Below, piece after piece: positions 17,355 through 23,583 of a stretch of DNA of 41,539 bases (its first letter is position 1; the number at the start of each line of letters is the position of its first letter). Both the position numbers and the translations under genes were made by a program. The notes below the pieces were generated by a model. It saw nothing but the letters and a program-made list of their open reading frames with translations. It was not told the DNA's origin and did not search any database. Source of the DNA: a virus; the IMG/VR virus record IMGVR_UViG_3300009093_000076, positions 1 to 41,539 of that record; one strand, 5' to 3'.

Positions 17355-17439
17355 GCGTTTCAGTTCGCGCGCGTGGTGTCAAGGTTCTGTCAGCGTTCGG
17401 CCGGTTGGTCAAGTGGTTCGTGAGAGCCCAAATCCACAG

Positions 17440-17452
17440 CTGGTTCAACCAG
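17440..17452. promoter_or_regulatory. Perfect 13-bp palindrome (operator- or origin-like)
   Basis: CTGGTT-C-AACCAG reads as a perfect 6+1+6 inverted repeat and runs directly into the 9-bp repeats. It shares the core GTTSAAC with the palindrome over the early promoter at 24538-24550 (CAAGTT-G-AACTTG). The same protein may bind both; this is inferred from symmetry alone. Confidence 0.4.
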
Positions 17453-17559
17453 TGTAGGAAGTGTAGGATTTCGCCGAACCTCGCTTCACATGATGTGTGC
17501 GCCTGCGCGTGCGCGCGCGTGAAGACCATGGTTTGTTGAAAAGCTACACTTCCTACACT
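17451..17559. repeat. 16-bp inverted repeat with 77-bp spacer, left arm a tandem 9-mer
   Basis: The left arm 17451-17466 (AGTGTAGGAAGTGTAG) is the exact reverse complement of the right arm 17544-17559. The left arm continues as two copies of AGTGTAGGA (17451-17459 and 17460-17468). The right arm lies 17 bp from the helicase stop. The spacer holds an 11-bp palindrome and a Z-DNA-prone alternating tract. Confidence 0.75.
17493..17521. other. Alternating purine-pyrimidine tract
   Basis: Positions 17493-17502 and 17504-17521 alternate purine and pyrimidine (TGCGCGTGCGCGCGCGTG in the second part) with one break at 17503. Such tracts can adopt left-handed DNA under negative supercoiling. It sits in the spacer of the 16-bp inverted repeat, next to the helicase gene. 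Confidence 0.6.
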
Positions 17560-17576
17560 TTCTTCTAGTCTCATTG

Positions 17577-19028
17577 TTAGTCTGTCAACCTCACTGGATA
17601 TATTACCGCCTGGGCAGACCTGACTGCCGCGAGCTTGAGCATGCTCATTCGCTCCTTGAACCGACCCTGGGTCAGCGGCTTCGAGTGCCCGTTGTCCAAA
17701 GCCCACACCTTGTACGACTTGTAGGCCTGGTCCGAGGTTGCCCACCAATGATGCGGAGCCGTCGCTGGCAGTCGCTCACACCGGTCGGTCACGAAGGCGT
17801 CTACCTGGTCCGCGCGCTTACGCCACGCCGTGAGCGCCTCGACAGAGCTGGCGGGCTTCGTGTACTGGCCCTGCCTCAAGGCCCTCACGGCGCCGCGCAG
17901 GAGCCACGACACCAGCTCGGCGCGCTCGGCCGTGACCTTAGCTTCGATGTTGGTGTCCTGCTCGTGAGGGAGGAAGGTGCGCAAGAACGGTATTACCTCC
18001 CAGCGGCGCCAAAACCCTCCGGATTGGTCGGTGGTGTCGGGCAGGATGTTGCAGCTGTAGAGGTGGCCAGCAATGGGGCGAAAGTGGACGATATCCTTGA
18101 AGATGGCGCGAGCCTTGATGAGGTTCTTGCCGTCGACGATGGCCTTCCAGGGCTCGGTGCTGCCAATCTCGCGGGCCTCCACCTCCGAGACCACGTTGAG
18201 CAGCTTGCCCGGGAACTGAGCCCGGTCGTAGTCCTGGTTCATGTTGTGCGGCGAGATCGAGATGACCGAGTCAGGAGGCATAGCCGCGGCGATGATTGCC
18301 TGAAACGTGCTCTTGCCGTTCGAGCCCTCGTTGCCGGTCATCATGATGACCTTCTGGTAGCGGCACCCTTCGCCGATGAGCGACATGCCAACGTGCTCTT
18401 GGAGCAGCGCGATTTTCTCTTCGGCATCAGCGTCGTCTCGGAATGAAGCTCGCAGGAAGGTGAGCAGCTCGGTAGGTTCACCATGCTCCTTGAACGGGAA
18501 GTCGTAGGCGAAGCGCGCGCGGTGTTCTTGCTTGTGCTCGTGCTGGGTGATGCCGTCTGCTGTCACCTCAACAAAAGAGGACAGAAACCCAATGCCGCGT
18601 TTCCCTTGCTCAAAGAATCCCTGCTCGAAGATTCGGTCAGCCGCGCAGGTGATGTCCGACTTGATGTCCGAGAGCTTGAGCGACAGGCGCTTCTCGTTGC
18701 TCAGCGGCGAGCCTGAATAGTCCTGAACGATGCAGCGCAGAGCCTGCTCGGTCAGCTGCGAATACACTCCGCGCGCTGGGTCGTATCGGTAGAACCCGCC
18801 ATCGCTGAAGGTCGTGTGGGCCACACCTTGAAGGTCAGCGTTTAGCCACTTGCCGATCTCGACGTGGTCCCCGAGGTCGAATAGGTGCTGGCCCTCACCG
18901 GCGACAAGCGGCTCCTTCGGTTTCGCCGGCTTGCGCGTCCTAATGTCAGTGACGGTCGCCTTTGGCGGCGCGTCAGGCGCATCTTCGTCCGACGGGATCC
19001 AACCGTCGTCATCGATTGGCCCCGGCAT
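17577..19028 (-). CDS. SF3 / D5-type replicative helicase (primase-helicase C-terminal type)
   Basis: This 483-aa protein starts at ATG 19028 (TGATG overlap; the GTG at 19031 directly before is equally possible). A short acidic N-terminus is followed by a D5_N-like helical region (about 45-200), then the SF3 ATPase. That ATPase has Walker A MTGNEGSNGKST (about residues 230-241), a Walker B-like LLNVVSEVEA (about 276-285) and a following NILPDTTDQSGGFWRR segment typical of the sensor/arginine region. A C-terminal winged-helix-like part ends the protein. Relatives unwind DNA at phage or plasmid origins. No primase catalytic domain is visible; the N-terminus is too short for an AEP or TOPRIM module. 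Confidence 0.85.
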   Translation of the reverse strand: MPGPIDDDGWIPSDEDAPDAPPKATVTDIRTRKPAKPKEPLVAGEGQHLFDLGDHVEIGKWLNADLQGVAHTTFSDGGFYRYDPARGVYSQLTEQALRCIVQDYSGSPLSNEKRLSLKLSDIKSDITCAADRIFEQGFFEQGKRGIGFLSSFVEVTADGITQHEHKQEHRARFAYDFPFKEHGEPTELLTFLRASFRDDADAEEKIALLQEHVGMSLIGEGCRYQKVIMMTGNEGSNGKSTFQAIIAAAMPPDSVISISPHNMNQDYDRAQFPGKLLNVVSEVEAREIGSTEPWKAIVDGKNLIKARAIFKDIVHFRPIAGHLYSCNILPDTTDQSGGFWRRWEVIPFLRTFLPHEQDTNIEAKVTAERAELVSWLLRGAVRALRQGQYTKPASSVEALTAWRKRADQVDAFVTDRCERLPATAPHHWWATSDQAYKSYKVWALDNGHSKPLTQGRFKERMSMLKLAAVRSAQAVIYPVRLTD

Positions 19029-19228
19029 CACTTCGCACCAATGCGCTTCTCTTCCGCCTCAGCAAGCGACTCGAAATCATCCGCCAGCGCCCTCAAAACT
19101 AACGCTAGCTGCTTGGCGCCTTCAATGTTCGACCAGATCGAAAGGTTTCCAGCAAACGCATGGGCTCCGGAACCGTCTGGCAGCTCAACAGCTGCCTCCA
19201 AAGAACGCTTGATGGTGACCTTTCCCAT
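19028..19228 (-). CDS. Small protein, unknown
   Basis: This 66-aa product starts at ATG 19228, which overlaps the RHH gene stop (TGATG); GTG 19231 is the alternative. It has a beta-rich first half (GKVTIKRSLEAAVELPDG) and a helical end (GAKQLALVLRALADDFESL). It sits between a putative DNA-binding protein and the helicase, so a replication accessory role is possible. No family is recognised. Confidence 0.6.
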   Translation of the reverse strand: MGKVTIKRSLEAAVELPDGSGAHAFAGNLSIWSNIEGAKQLALVLRALADDFESLAEAEEKRIGAK

Positions 19229-19419
19229 CACCCCACCGCCTTTCGCTCATCCTCACCCACCGAAACAGAGGCCACGTCAAGTCCCTTCAGCGTGCGCCTC
19301 CGCATCACCTGACTGATGCTCCAGCCACGCCGAGTAGCCTCGCGCCGAATCGCCTCAAGCTCTTCCGGAGTGAGGCGAATACCCACGTTTATAGTGCGCC
19401 CACGTTTCGGTTCCGTCAT
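19228..19419 (-). CDS. Ribbon-helix-helix (Arc/CopG-like) DNA-binding protein
   Basis: This 63-aa protein starts at ATG 19419. Residues 8-46 (RTINVGIRLTPEELEAIRR, then EATRRGWSISQVMRRR) have the beta strand, helix, turn, helix pattern of RHH repressors, with alternating residues in the strand for DNA contact. RHH dimers bind inverted repeats and often repress their own promoter. A perfect 10-bp palindrome lies 7 bp before the start codon, over a putative -10 box. Likely targets are its own operon, which includes the helicase. Confidence 0.7.
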   Translation of the reverse strand: MTEPKRGRTINVGIRLTPEELEAIRREATRRGWSISQVMRRRTLKGLDVASVSVGEDERKAVG

Positions 19420-21757: not shown

Positions 21758-21942
21758 GCTGACCTCGCAACGTCGCGCAGCTTCCAGGCTAGGTTTTCGC
21801 AGAGTCGGCAGCGCGGAGCTCGGCCGTCCTGGCATCGCTTCACGGGCACGCAGGCCTCGAGCGGCACCCAAGCCGCGCAACCTCGGCAGTACTTCTCGAC
21901 TCGGCCGTTTTGCTCACGTCGTCTCTGGCTTGTCTTGCGCAT
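21754..21942 (-). CDS. Zinc-finger microprotein
   Basis: This 62-aa product is read from ATG 21942, which has GAGGA six bases upstream; GTG 21954 is the alternative. It has a basic start, then KYCRGCAAWVPLEACVPVKR and RAPRCRLCENLAWKLRD. The two C-x2-C pairs spaced by about 25 residues match the zinc-ribbon part often found in front of HNH or endonuclease VII modules, but no nuclease module follows. It overlaps the end of the ERCC4 gene by 29 bp. Confidence 0.6.
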   Translation of the reverse strand: MRKTSQRRREQNGRVEKYCRGCAAWVPLEACVPVKRCQDGRAPRCRLCENLAWKLRDVARSA

Positions 21943-22462
21943 CCGGTTCCTCACAGCGGTAGATGTCCGACTTGCGCACCATGCGCATGCAGACCCACTC
22001 GATAAGCTTCGCGGCGCCCTGCTGGTTCCCGACCCAGTAGGCCGCCACGCCGTAGTCCATCTGGACAGCCCGCACGGCGCCCACGACGCTCTTGAAGTCG
22101 ATGTTCGAGCGGTAGGCGCCGGCTACCACCTCGGCCTCGTCAGCTTCAATCACGAGCATCCTGACGCGGTAGTCCGCCATGCGACGGCATTGGTCCATGA
22201 AGCGGTCCCGGTCGTGCCCGCAGCAGTGAACCAGATCGGGGAGGCTCTTGCGTTCCACCGCCAGCTGCGAACTGTAACCCTTGAGCGTGTAGTCCCCGGT
22301 GCCGATGCTGGCGACATCGACCCTGACGGCAGGGCTGAAGAAGCGATCGAGAGGAAGATTCTCGCGCGTGTCCCGCAAGATGACCGGCCGCACCTTCGCC
22401 TTGCGCGTCCCTTTCGGGACGGCTCCGAGGATTTCGACGGCGTCTTGCTCAGCGACGGGCAT
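21914..22462 (-). CDS. ERCC4/XPF-type nuclease
   Basis: This 182-aa protein carries the ERCC4 nuclease signature: DTRE at 31-34, GDYTL at 55-59 and ERKSLPD at 70-76 (the ERK-x3-D motif), then CGHDRDRFMDQCRRM. These acidic residues bind the catalytic metals. Relatives cut branched or flap DNA in recombination and repair. It lacks the tandem HhH domain of XPF, so it is a minimal version. It would work with the helicase and the annealing protein on replication intermediates. It starts at ATG 22462, overlapping the previous gene by 14 bp. Confidence 0.8.
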   Translation of the reverse strand: MPVAEQDAVEILGAVPKGTRKAKVRPVILRDTRENLPLDRFFSPAVRVDVASIGTGDYTLKGYSSQLAVERKSLPDLVHCCGHDRDRFMDQCRRMADYRVRMLVIEADEAEVVAGAYRSNIDFKSVVGAVRAVQMDYGVAAYWVGNQQGAAKLIEWVCMRMVRKSDIYRCEEPDAQDKPETT

Positions 22463-22724: not shown

Positions 22725-23107
22725 TACCAGCGCCTCGGTGGCATAGGCATGTCGACTACCGGGTATGGCCCCATCGGCTCCCAGTCGGCCCAACGAATCA
22801 TGACTCCGTTGGCCAAAGCGATGCCCTTCACTTTGAGCCTGAATTCCATAAGCGTATCGCTCCGCTCGAACATGTGCATCGAATGCCAGTTGTCCGGGTC
22901 GAAGCCCACATGGCGGAATCCCTGATGCATCGCGATCCTATGAGTCTGCGCGCGCGGCGGCTCCCCAAGCCAAATGACCCCGTCTCGGTCCGGAACGTGA
23001 ACCTGCTCCCAGCGAGAACGCTCGCGTTCGGCCCCGATCTTCTCGCCCTGAGTGCGTGCCTCGGCCTTGAATTTCTGGATCAGCCGGTCGACTTTCGACT
23101 TTTTCAC
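22724..23107 (-). CDS. Unknown protein next to DnaB-N-like gene
   Basis: This 127-aa product is read from GTG 23107, which overlaps the previous TGA (GTGA) and has AAGGAG five bases upstream; GTG 23113 fits the spacing less well. It has a basic coiled N-terminus (KKSKVDRLIQKFKAEARTQG), then a beta-rich domain (RDGVIWLGEPP, HRIAMHQGFRHVGFDPD, EFRLKVKGIALANG). No family is recognised. It lies between putative replication genes. Confidence 0.6.
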   Translation of the reverse strand: MKKSKVDRLIQKFKAEARTQGEKIGAERERSRWEQVHVPDRDGVIWLGEPPRAQTHRIAMHQGFRHVGFDPDNWHSMHMFERSDTLMEFRLKVKGIALANGVMIRWADWEPMGPYPVVDMPMPPRRW

Positions 23108-23583
23108 TTCCACTCCTTCAGGTGCTCCCGCACCGCTTGAATCGCCTCGGTGTGGCTCATGTCTTCCGCCCCGTCCGCGCGCAGCCGAATCGTCAGCCGC
23201 GCCGCCAACTCGACGAACGCCCGCCGCTTGGCCAACTCGCGCAGCCGGTCGAAGTCGAGCGCCCAGCCCATCCGCCGCGCGTGCTCCGCTTCAAGGCACA
23301 TCTCCGCGAGCTCGGTCGCCTTAACCAGAATCGGCCCGTACTTCGGCGCCGACTCGCGCAGCCAGGCGTTGACCTGGGCGACGTTGCCGCCGACTTCGAG
23401 GACAGTCTCGTAGATGCGCTGGTGGGCGGTTGAAAAGAAGTGGCGCGGCTCGAGCCATCGCGGCATCGGCTCGGCCAGCATCGCGGCGCCGAGGATGTTG
23501 CGCTCCAGCTCCTGGTCGAAAAGGCCCAGGAGCGATTCGCCTAGGGACGGCTCGGGCGTGGCGAGACGGAGGGCGGCGGTCAT
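23104..23583 (-). CDS. Stand-alone DnaB N-terminal-domain-like protein
   Basis: This 159-aa protein starts at ATG 23583 (ATGA overlap). Residues 25-80 (QELERNILGAAMLAEPMPRW, then HFFSTAHQRIYETVLEVGG) match the opening of DnaB-family helicases, the helical primase- and loader-contacting domain. The RecA-like ATPase domain is absent. It could act as a helicase loader, a primase adaptor, or a decoy that captures host DnaG or loader. The C-terminal half is a long charged helix. It lies in the same operon as the SF3 helicase. Confidence 0.65.
   Translation of the reverse strand: MTAALRLATPEPSLGESLLGLFDQELERNILGAAMLAEPMPRWLEPRHFFSTAHQRIYETVLEVGGNVAQVNAWLRESAPKYGPILVKATELAEMCLEAEHARRMGWALDFDRLRELAKRRAFVELAARLTIRLRADGAEDMSHTEAIQAVREHLKEWK

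What the first reader, a model, noticed from the sequence alone, without database searches (positions are those of the whole stretch)
17440..17559. Origin-like array beside the helicase gene
The 223-bp non-coding segment packs a perfect 13-bp palindrome, two tandem 9-mers, a perfect 16-bp inverted repeat with 77-bp spacer, an 11-bp palindrome and an alternating purine-pyrimidine tract, all within 120 bp and just after an SF3/D5-type helicase. P4-alpha-type helicases bind short iterated repeats at their origins, so this may be the replication origin. The arrangement (repeat, Z-prone tract, inverted repeat copy) is itself striking.
Basis: partly seen in the sequence, partly recalled or inferred. 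Interest (0 to 1): 0.72.

Follow-up and report, generated by a model that had tools for sequence, protein, structure and literature searches.

The report
Phage replication origin beside its helicase
The 120-bp repeat cluster just after this virus's helicase gene is very probably where its DNA replication starts, built to the plan known from phage satellites (paired 9-bp repeats facing each other), but with a GC-rich, Z-DNA-prone stretch in the middle that recurs in many GC-rich relatives.

Summary
The window's only strong inverted repeat of this kind, its longest alternating purine-pyrimidine run and its lowest-GC 60 bp all fall in one ~120-bp stretch directly 3' of a P4-family (TIGR01613/DUF5906) helicase gene. 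The array is four 9-bp iterons (AGTGTAGGA), two facing two, 77 bp apart. This layout was found in 22 + 25 viral and 43 genomic stretches, against 1 for a scrambled core; in 28 of these loci it lies within 160 bp 3' of a P4/DUF5906/VapE helicase. A helicase-first sample shows the same layout with other iterons in 59 of 91 3' regions; 5' regions gave 0 of 43 (3 of 89 in a wider set). The blind test also recovers two annotated replication elements, P4 crr and the Sfi21 origin. Best reading: a self-loading-helicase origin of the SaPI/PICI/P4 kind in a tailed-virus genome. It departs from the published PICI plan: the spacer is not AT-rich but 57% GC with an 18-nt CG/TG alternating tract. Such tracts are enriched in origins of GC-rich loci (11 of 16 clusters, Fisher p about 8e-15). 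Function is inferred; nothing was assayed. GC skew gives no support.

The parts
17577..19031 (-). P4-family (SF3, D5-type) helicase, 484 aa, no primase domain found; presumed initiator that binds the array
   Evidence: TIGR01613 over cut-off, DUF5906 over cut-off, invariant G232/K239/N327/R342, SaPI5 Rep 7ola closest solved relative by profile, fold match
17451..17468 (+). left iteron pair, AGTGTAGGA x2
17544..17561 (-). right iteron pair, inverted copies (CTACACTTC, CTACACTTT on the + strand)
17467..17543 (.). 77-bp spacer between the two iteron pairs, 57% GC
   Evidence: spacer lengths 62-92 bp were set by the search pattern, median loop 78 bp in the sample blind to sequence
17504..17521 (.). 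18-nt alternating purine-pyrimidine (Z-prone) tract TGCGCGTGCGCGCGCGTG
   Evidence: longest in the window; p about 0.001-0.002 against shuffled spacer; recurs in GC-rich origins
17520..17591 (.). lowest-GC stretch of the window (best 60-mers 36.7% GC), overlapping the right iteron pair and the helicase stop; possible melting region
17355..17576 (.). 222-bp non-coding gap that holds the origin

Best explanation
The segment 17451-17579 is the cis replication origin of this virus. The helicase encoded next to it binds the 9-bp AGTGTAGGA iterons through its C-terminal winged-helix-like domain. Two pairs facing each other 77 bp apart would place two hexameric rings head to head; ATP-driven pumping then melts the DNA between or beside them, helped by the alternating CG/TG tract (which can take up negative supercoiling as Z-DNA) and the adjacent lowest-GC stretch. 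Two forks leave in opposite directions, with priming by another viral or a host primase. Shown here: the anatomy, its position, the family of the helicase, recurrence of the layout beside diverse relatives, and the tract enrichment. Inferred: DNA binding, two rings, melting, any role of Z-DNA, and direction of replication.
For: Array exceeds chance. Layout search: 22 + 25 viral stretches against 1 for a scrambled core, and that one hit is itself such an array 3' of a P4-type helicase. 25 of 40 records carry DUF5906 or VapE. In 28 loci the array is within 160 bp 3' of the helicase ORF. Linker triplet identical in both arms in 32 of 50 distinct arrays, 2.1 expected. Helicase-first, blind to sequence: 59 of 91 3' regions against 0 of 43 5' regions; after clustering 18 of 38 unselected clusters against 3 of 89 5' regions. 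Annotated P4 crr and Sfi21 origin recovered. Published precedents: SaPI Rep and Cch2 recognise repeats directly downstream of their genes, Cch2 through its C-terminal domain (PMC7581432); PICI rep-ori drives a plasmid (PMC6092414).
Against: No GC-skew switch. About half of unselected helicase clusters have no detectable layout, nor do the best-covered named relatives Seuss, JWF and Lumi. In G019, among the closest helicases seen (29.8%), a similar array is not adjacent to the helicase. No binding or replication data for this virus. Background of inverted repeats 3' of other long ORFs is 39 of 399, though some of these are the arrays themselves.
Confidence: 0.85

Rival explanations
1. A transcription control region: a regulator binds the inverted 9-bp repeats and governs the genes that run from 17354 downward, presumed to lead into packaging genes.
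For: The array lies between early-type and presumed late genes on one strand; in L038 and L069 similar arrays lie upstream of terminase large-subunit genes.
Against: The constant neighbour across lineages is the helicase upstream, while the downstream gene varies (integrase in a streptococcal satellite phage; polymerase, methylase or others elsewhere). No sigma-70-like promoter or terminator in the region.
Confidence: 0.06
2. A packaging (pac or cos-linked) site recognised by the small terminase subunit.
For: In L038, L069 and L021 the array sits near terminase genes.
Against: The layout tracks the helicase also where no terminase is nearby: satellite phage Javan591 (VapE then integrase), genomic loci and P4 crr.
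Confidence: 0.03
3. A recombination, attachment or plasmid-partition-like site rather than an origin.
For: Paired inverted repeats are typical of such sites too; P4 attP lies close to crr.
Against: No integrase was identified next to the array in the window; association is with the helicase across families; experimental precedents are origins (PMC6092414, PMC7581432, PMC4234260).
Confidence: 0.03
4. Chance cluster of short repeats with no function.
For: Short repeats occur by chance, and the two odd palindromes may be no more than that.
Against: The array exceeds shuffles and the layout recurs beside diverse helicases.
Confidence: 0.02

Closest known systems
PICI/SaPI replication origins (SaPIbov1, SaPI5, EcCICFT073; PMC6092414, PMC7581432)
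   Same: Immediately 3' of the replication-initiator helicase gene; two sets of short iterons flank a central region; helicase homologous to SaPI5 Rep.
   Different: Published PICI origins have an AT-rich centre; here the spacer is 57% GC with a CG/TG alternating tract. The window carries a tailed-virus head-tail adaptor (PF24175) rather than looking like a 10-15 kb satellite. No fused primase domain found.
Phage P4 crr and ori, alpha protein
   Same: crr is annotated 46-345 bp past the alpha stop, with 8-mers at 9-bp spacing in both orientations; helicase of the same TIGR01613 family.
   Different: Iteron GGTGAACA instead of AGTGTAGGA; crr is a 120-bp direct duplication and works with a distant ori; alpha carries a fused primase.
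Streptococcus phage Sfi21 origin
   Same: Annotated 302-bp non-coding origin right 3' of the orf382 primase/helicase gene; facing repeats around a 71-bp loop.
   Different: Different repeat with a period of 8, AT-rich loop.
SCCmec cch2 downstream repeats and pRN1 stem-loop (PMC7581432, PMC4234260)
   Same: Cis element directly downstream of a D5/SF3-type replication helicase; the Cch2 iteron AAGTG is a string also found in AAGTGTAG here; pRN1 uses a ~100-nt stem-loop.
   Different: Cch2 binding needs the direct repeats only and its inverted repeats were dispensable; in pRN1 the stem-loop structure itself is required.

Membership tests
P4-family phage/plasmid helicase (TIGR01613 / DUF5906) | score over curated cut-off | tested here: met
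   TIGR01613 125.2 bits over 108.7; PF19263 46.3 over 27.6
P4-family phage/plasmid helicase (TIGR01613 / DUF5906) | SF3 ATPase residues (Walker A GxxGxxGK, motif C Asn, Arg) | tested here: met
   G232, K239, N327, R342 invariant in both alignments
PICI/SaPI-type origin | lies immediately 3' of the replication-initiator gene | tested here: met
   iterons begin about 16 bp past the helicase stop
PICI/SaPI-type origin | two sets of iterons flanking a central region | tested here: met
   two pairs of 9-mers in opposite orientation, 77-bp spacer
PICI/SaPI-type origin | AT-rich region between the iteron sets (PMC6092414) | tested here: not met
   spacer 57% GC with an 18-nt CG/TG alternating run; the lowest-GC stretch lies at and beyond the right pair
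PICI/SaPI-type origin | rep plus ori sustains a plasmid | not testable with these tools
   needs an experiment
PICI/SaPI-type origin | initiator binds the iterons through its C-terminal domain | not testable with these tools
   model shows a confident C-terminal helix-helix-strand-strand unit only
PICI element (satellite) | small satellite without a full set of virion genes | tested here: inconclusive
   41.5-kb virus record with an SU10-type head-tail adaptor (PF24175); portal and terminase had no family hit
P4 crr/ori | type 1 iteron sequence GGTGAACA | tested here: not met
   iteron here is AGTGTAGGA

The most novel reading that the evidence does not exclude
The alternating CG/TG (Z-prone) tract between facing iteron pairs is a working part of a large class of P4-family helicase origins in GC-rich phages and mobile elements, taking the place of the AT-rich unwinding region known from PICIs; and a simple rule (facing 9-bp iterons just 3' of the helicase, with a lineage-specific iteron) locates the origin of many uncharacterised phages from sequence.
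Probability: 0.35. Interest if true: 0.78.

Novelty: new variant of a known kind. Interest (0 to 1): 0.62.

Why it matters
Replication origins are unknown for most phages. A sequence rule tying the origin to the 3' end of a common helicase family would make many of them testable at once. The layout was described as shared by no known bacterial replicon other than PICIs (PMC6092414); finding it 3' of helicases in this virus and in named tailed phages widens that. The recurring Z-prone tract in GC-rich origins poses a direct question about how these helicases open DNA that lacks an AT-rich centre.

Tried and rejected
GC skew: no switch near 17.5 kb. Single-protein search for related loci: no relatives; a 13-sequence alignment was too divergent to search with. 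DNA-level search of the segment in phage records: only short chance matches. Idea that GTGTAG is universal for P4-family helicases: rejected, 5 of 90 in the helicase-first sample, four of them in genomes chosen for the motif. Idea that the Z-prone tract is universal: rejected, weak in AT-richer loci (4 of 25 at p<0.05). A first grouping of loops by shared 12-mers over-merged CG-tract loops and was replaced by protein clustering. Idea that VapE and D5 C-terminal domains are detectably homologous: no hhalign support (probability 0.2), whereas D5-type GTGTAG users and D5-type users of other iterons align at 99.9. Ten Promicromonospora loci were excluded as one repetitive family. Literature search for the iteron string found no paper; a search for Z-DNA with phage origins and iterons showed no paper on this among the 12 listed titles, which I did not read in full.

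Full report
What is there. The 222-bp gap 17355-17576 lies between the stop of a 484-aa gene (17577-19031, minus strand) and the start of a 106-aa gene on the same strand. It holds two tandem AGTGTAGGA 9-mers (17451-17468) and, 77 bp on, an inverted tandem pair (17544-17561); the arms form a perfect 16-bp inverted repeat. It is the only such inverted repeat in the 41.5-kb record scoring at least 12; none of 60 shuffled windows had a 16-bp one. The 18-nt alternating run 17504-17521 is the longest in the record, and the record's lowest-GC 60-mers begin at 17520-17532. The window is a whole virus record, host unknown, and I found no terminal repeats.

The helicase. TIGR01613 (phage/plasmid primase, P4 family) scores 125.2 bits over a cut-off of 108.7, DUF5906 46.3 over 27.6. 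Invariant G232, K239, N327, R342 fit an SF3 ATPase. By profile the closest solved protein is the SaPI5 primase-helicase 7ola/7om0 (E 1e-59), also the only clear single-sequence hit (E 2e-5). The AlphaFold model is mostly confident from about residue 150 on and ends in a helix-helix-strand-strand unit (432-481); Foldseek finds the rings of AsfvPrimPol and SaPI5 Rep. No primase domain was found, and residues 1-88 are predicted with low confidence.

Motif-first comparison. The exact 16-mer AGTGTAGGAAGTGTAG occurs in 19 viral contigs. In the 12 where, by eye, it lies inside coding sequence, no DUF5906 helicase is present; the four records with a DUF5906 helicase are all among those with structured arrays. 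The layout GTGTAGNNNGTGTAG-N62-92-inverted pair was found in 22 viral stretches, its everted form in 25, a scrambled core in 1. That single control hit, L077, is itself a facing-iteron array directly 3' of a P4-type helicase, with iteron GTTGCGCGA. Of 40 new records, 25 carry DUF5906 or VapE. A genome scan added 43 stretches, ten from one repetitive Promicromonospora family. In 28 loci the array lies within 160 bp 3' of the helicase ORF end. Some of the rest sit 3' of DUF927 or DUF3987 proteins (L059, L097, L100). The 3-nt linker inside each pair differs between lineages, yet is the same in both arms in 32 of 50 distinct arrays, 2.1 expected.

Helicase-first comparison, blind to sequence. I took 94 TIGR01613 loci from three bacterial groups without regard to repeats (a few come from genomes chosen for the motif, and clusters containing those are left out of the unselected count). 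In the 300 bp 3' of the gene, 33 of 90 show a significantly repeated 7-mer, against 0 of 42 5' regions, and 59 of 91 (with the window) an inverted repeat scoring at least 10, against 0 of 43. After clustering all helicases at 50% identity, 18 of 38 clusters not selected by motif are positive; 5' regions 3 of 89. Background 3' of other long ORFs is 39 of 399, some of these being the arrays themselves. Iterons differ (ATGACGCTT, TGACGAAAG, TACGAGGTC and others), the tandem period is mostly 9 bp (14 of 22) and the median loop is 78 bp. Among 19 named phage isolates 8 are positive, including Mycobacterium Anaya, Arthrobacter Constance and Microcystis Mae-JY02. Two elements annotated in their records as replication elements are recovered: P4 crr, 46 bp past the alpha stop, and the Sfi21 origin.

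The alternating tract. In one search the longest alternating run in the spacer exceeded shuffled spacers (10 of 50 with p<0.05). In one search, one random representative per cluster, loci with GC >= 0.55 show a mean longest alternating run of 13.1 against 6.3 in shuffled spacers, 11 of 16 with p<0.05 (Fisher 8e-15); loci below 0.55 show 7.5 against 6.3 (Fisher 0.009). Same-length segments elsewhere in the helicase-first loci reach 10 nt in about 5%. Whether the tract forms Z-DNA or helps opening is inference.

How it most likely works. By analogy with SaPI Rep and Cch2, which recognise repeats directly downstream of their own genes through their C-terminal domains (PMC7581432), the helicase binds the two facing iteron pairs, assembles two rings and melts the intervening or adjacent DNA. 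Published PICI origins have two iteron sets around an AT-rich region and drive a plasmid with their rep gene; [quoted passage not shown] In pRN1 a ~100-nt stem-loop 3' of the replication gene is essential and a similar one was noted in a phage (PMC4234260). The 131-nt strand here likewise folds into a long hairpin (z -5.7). Binding, ring assembly, melting and bidirectional replication are not shown.

Membership. The helicase is a member of the P4 family. The array works like a PICI/SaPI origin and meets the positional and two-set criteria, but its spacer is not AT-rich, so I file it as a variant, not a member. It is not a P4 crr (different iteron).

Limits. GC skew gives no support. About half of unselected helicase clusters lack a detectable layout, and the named relatives with the best tblastn coverage (Seuss, JWF, Lumi) lack it. 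In G019, whose helicase is among the closest seen (29.8% identity), a similar array lies about 9 kb from the helicase if the record is circular. The helicase-first sample covers three bacterial groups plus selected phages.

Noticed in passing
window 23104-23583 (-): A 159-aa protein with only a DnaB N-terminal domain (PF00772, 24.4 bits), an orphan domain in a genome whose replicative helicase is of the P4 family.
   Followed up: no
window 21914-22462 (-): ERCC4/XPF-type nuclease (PF02732, 43.5 bits), similar to archaeal Hef/Xpf models.
   Followed up: no
window 19228-19419 (-): Small NikA-like ribbon-helix-helix protein (PF21983) two genes upstream of the helicase.
   Followed up: no
L059 84-3332, L097 1-1272, L100 1061-3646: GTGTAG facing arrays also lie 3' of DUF927 proteins (one a DnaG-type primase fusion) and of a DUF3987 protein, so the same iteron core is used beside other helicase-like families.
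   Followed up: partly
L078, L080, L085, L086, L107, L108, L112, L113, L114, L120: Promicromonospora kroppenstedtii DSM 19349 carries many copies of a GTGTAGAAG inverted array on several contigs; what they are is unknown.
   Followed up: no
L038 1198-1297, L069 2901-3022: Arrays without a nearby P4-type helicase lie upstream of terminase large-subunit genes, the same side of the genome as in the window.
   Followed up: partly
L118 1582-1694, L110 294-406: Two genomic arrays lie beside chromosomal genes (methylmalonyl-CoA mutase; exonuclease I), perhaps marking ends of integrated elements.
   Followed up: no
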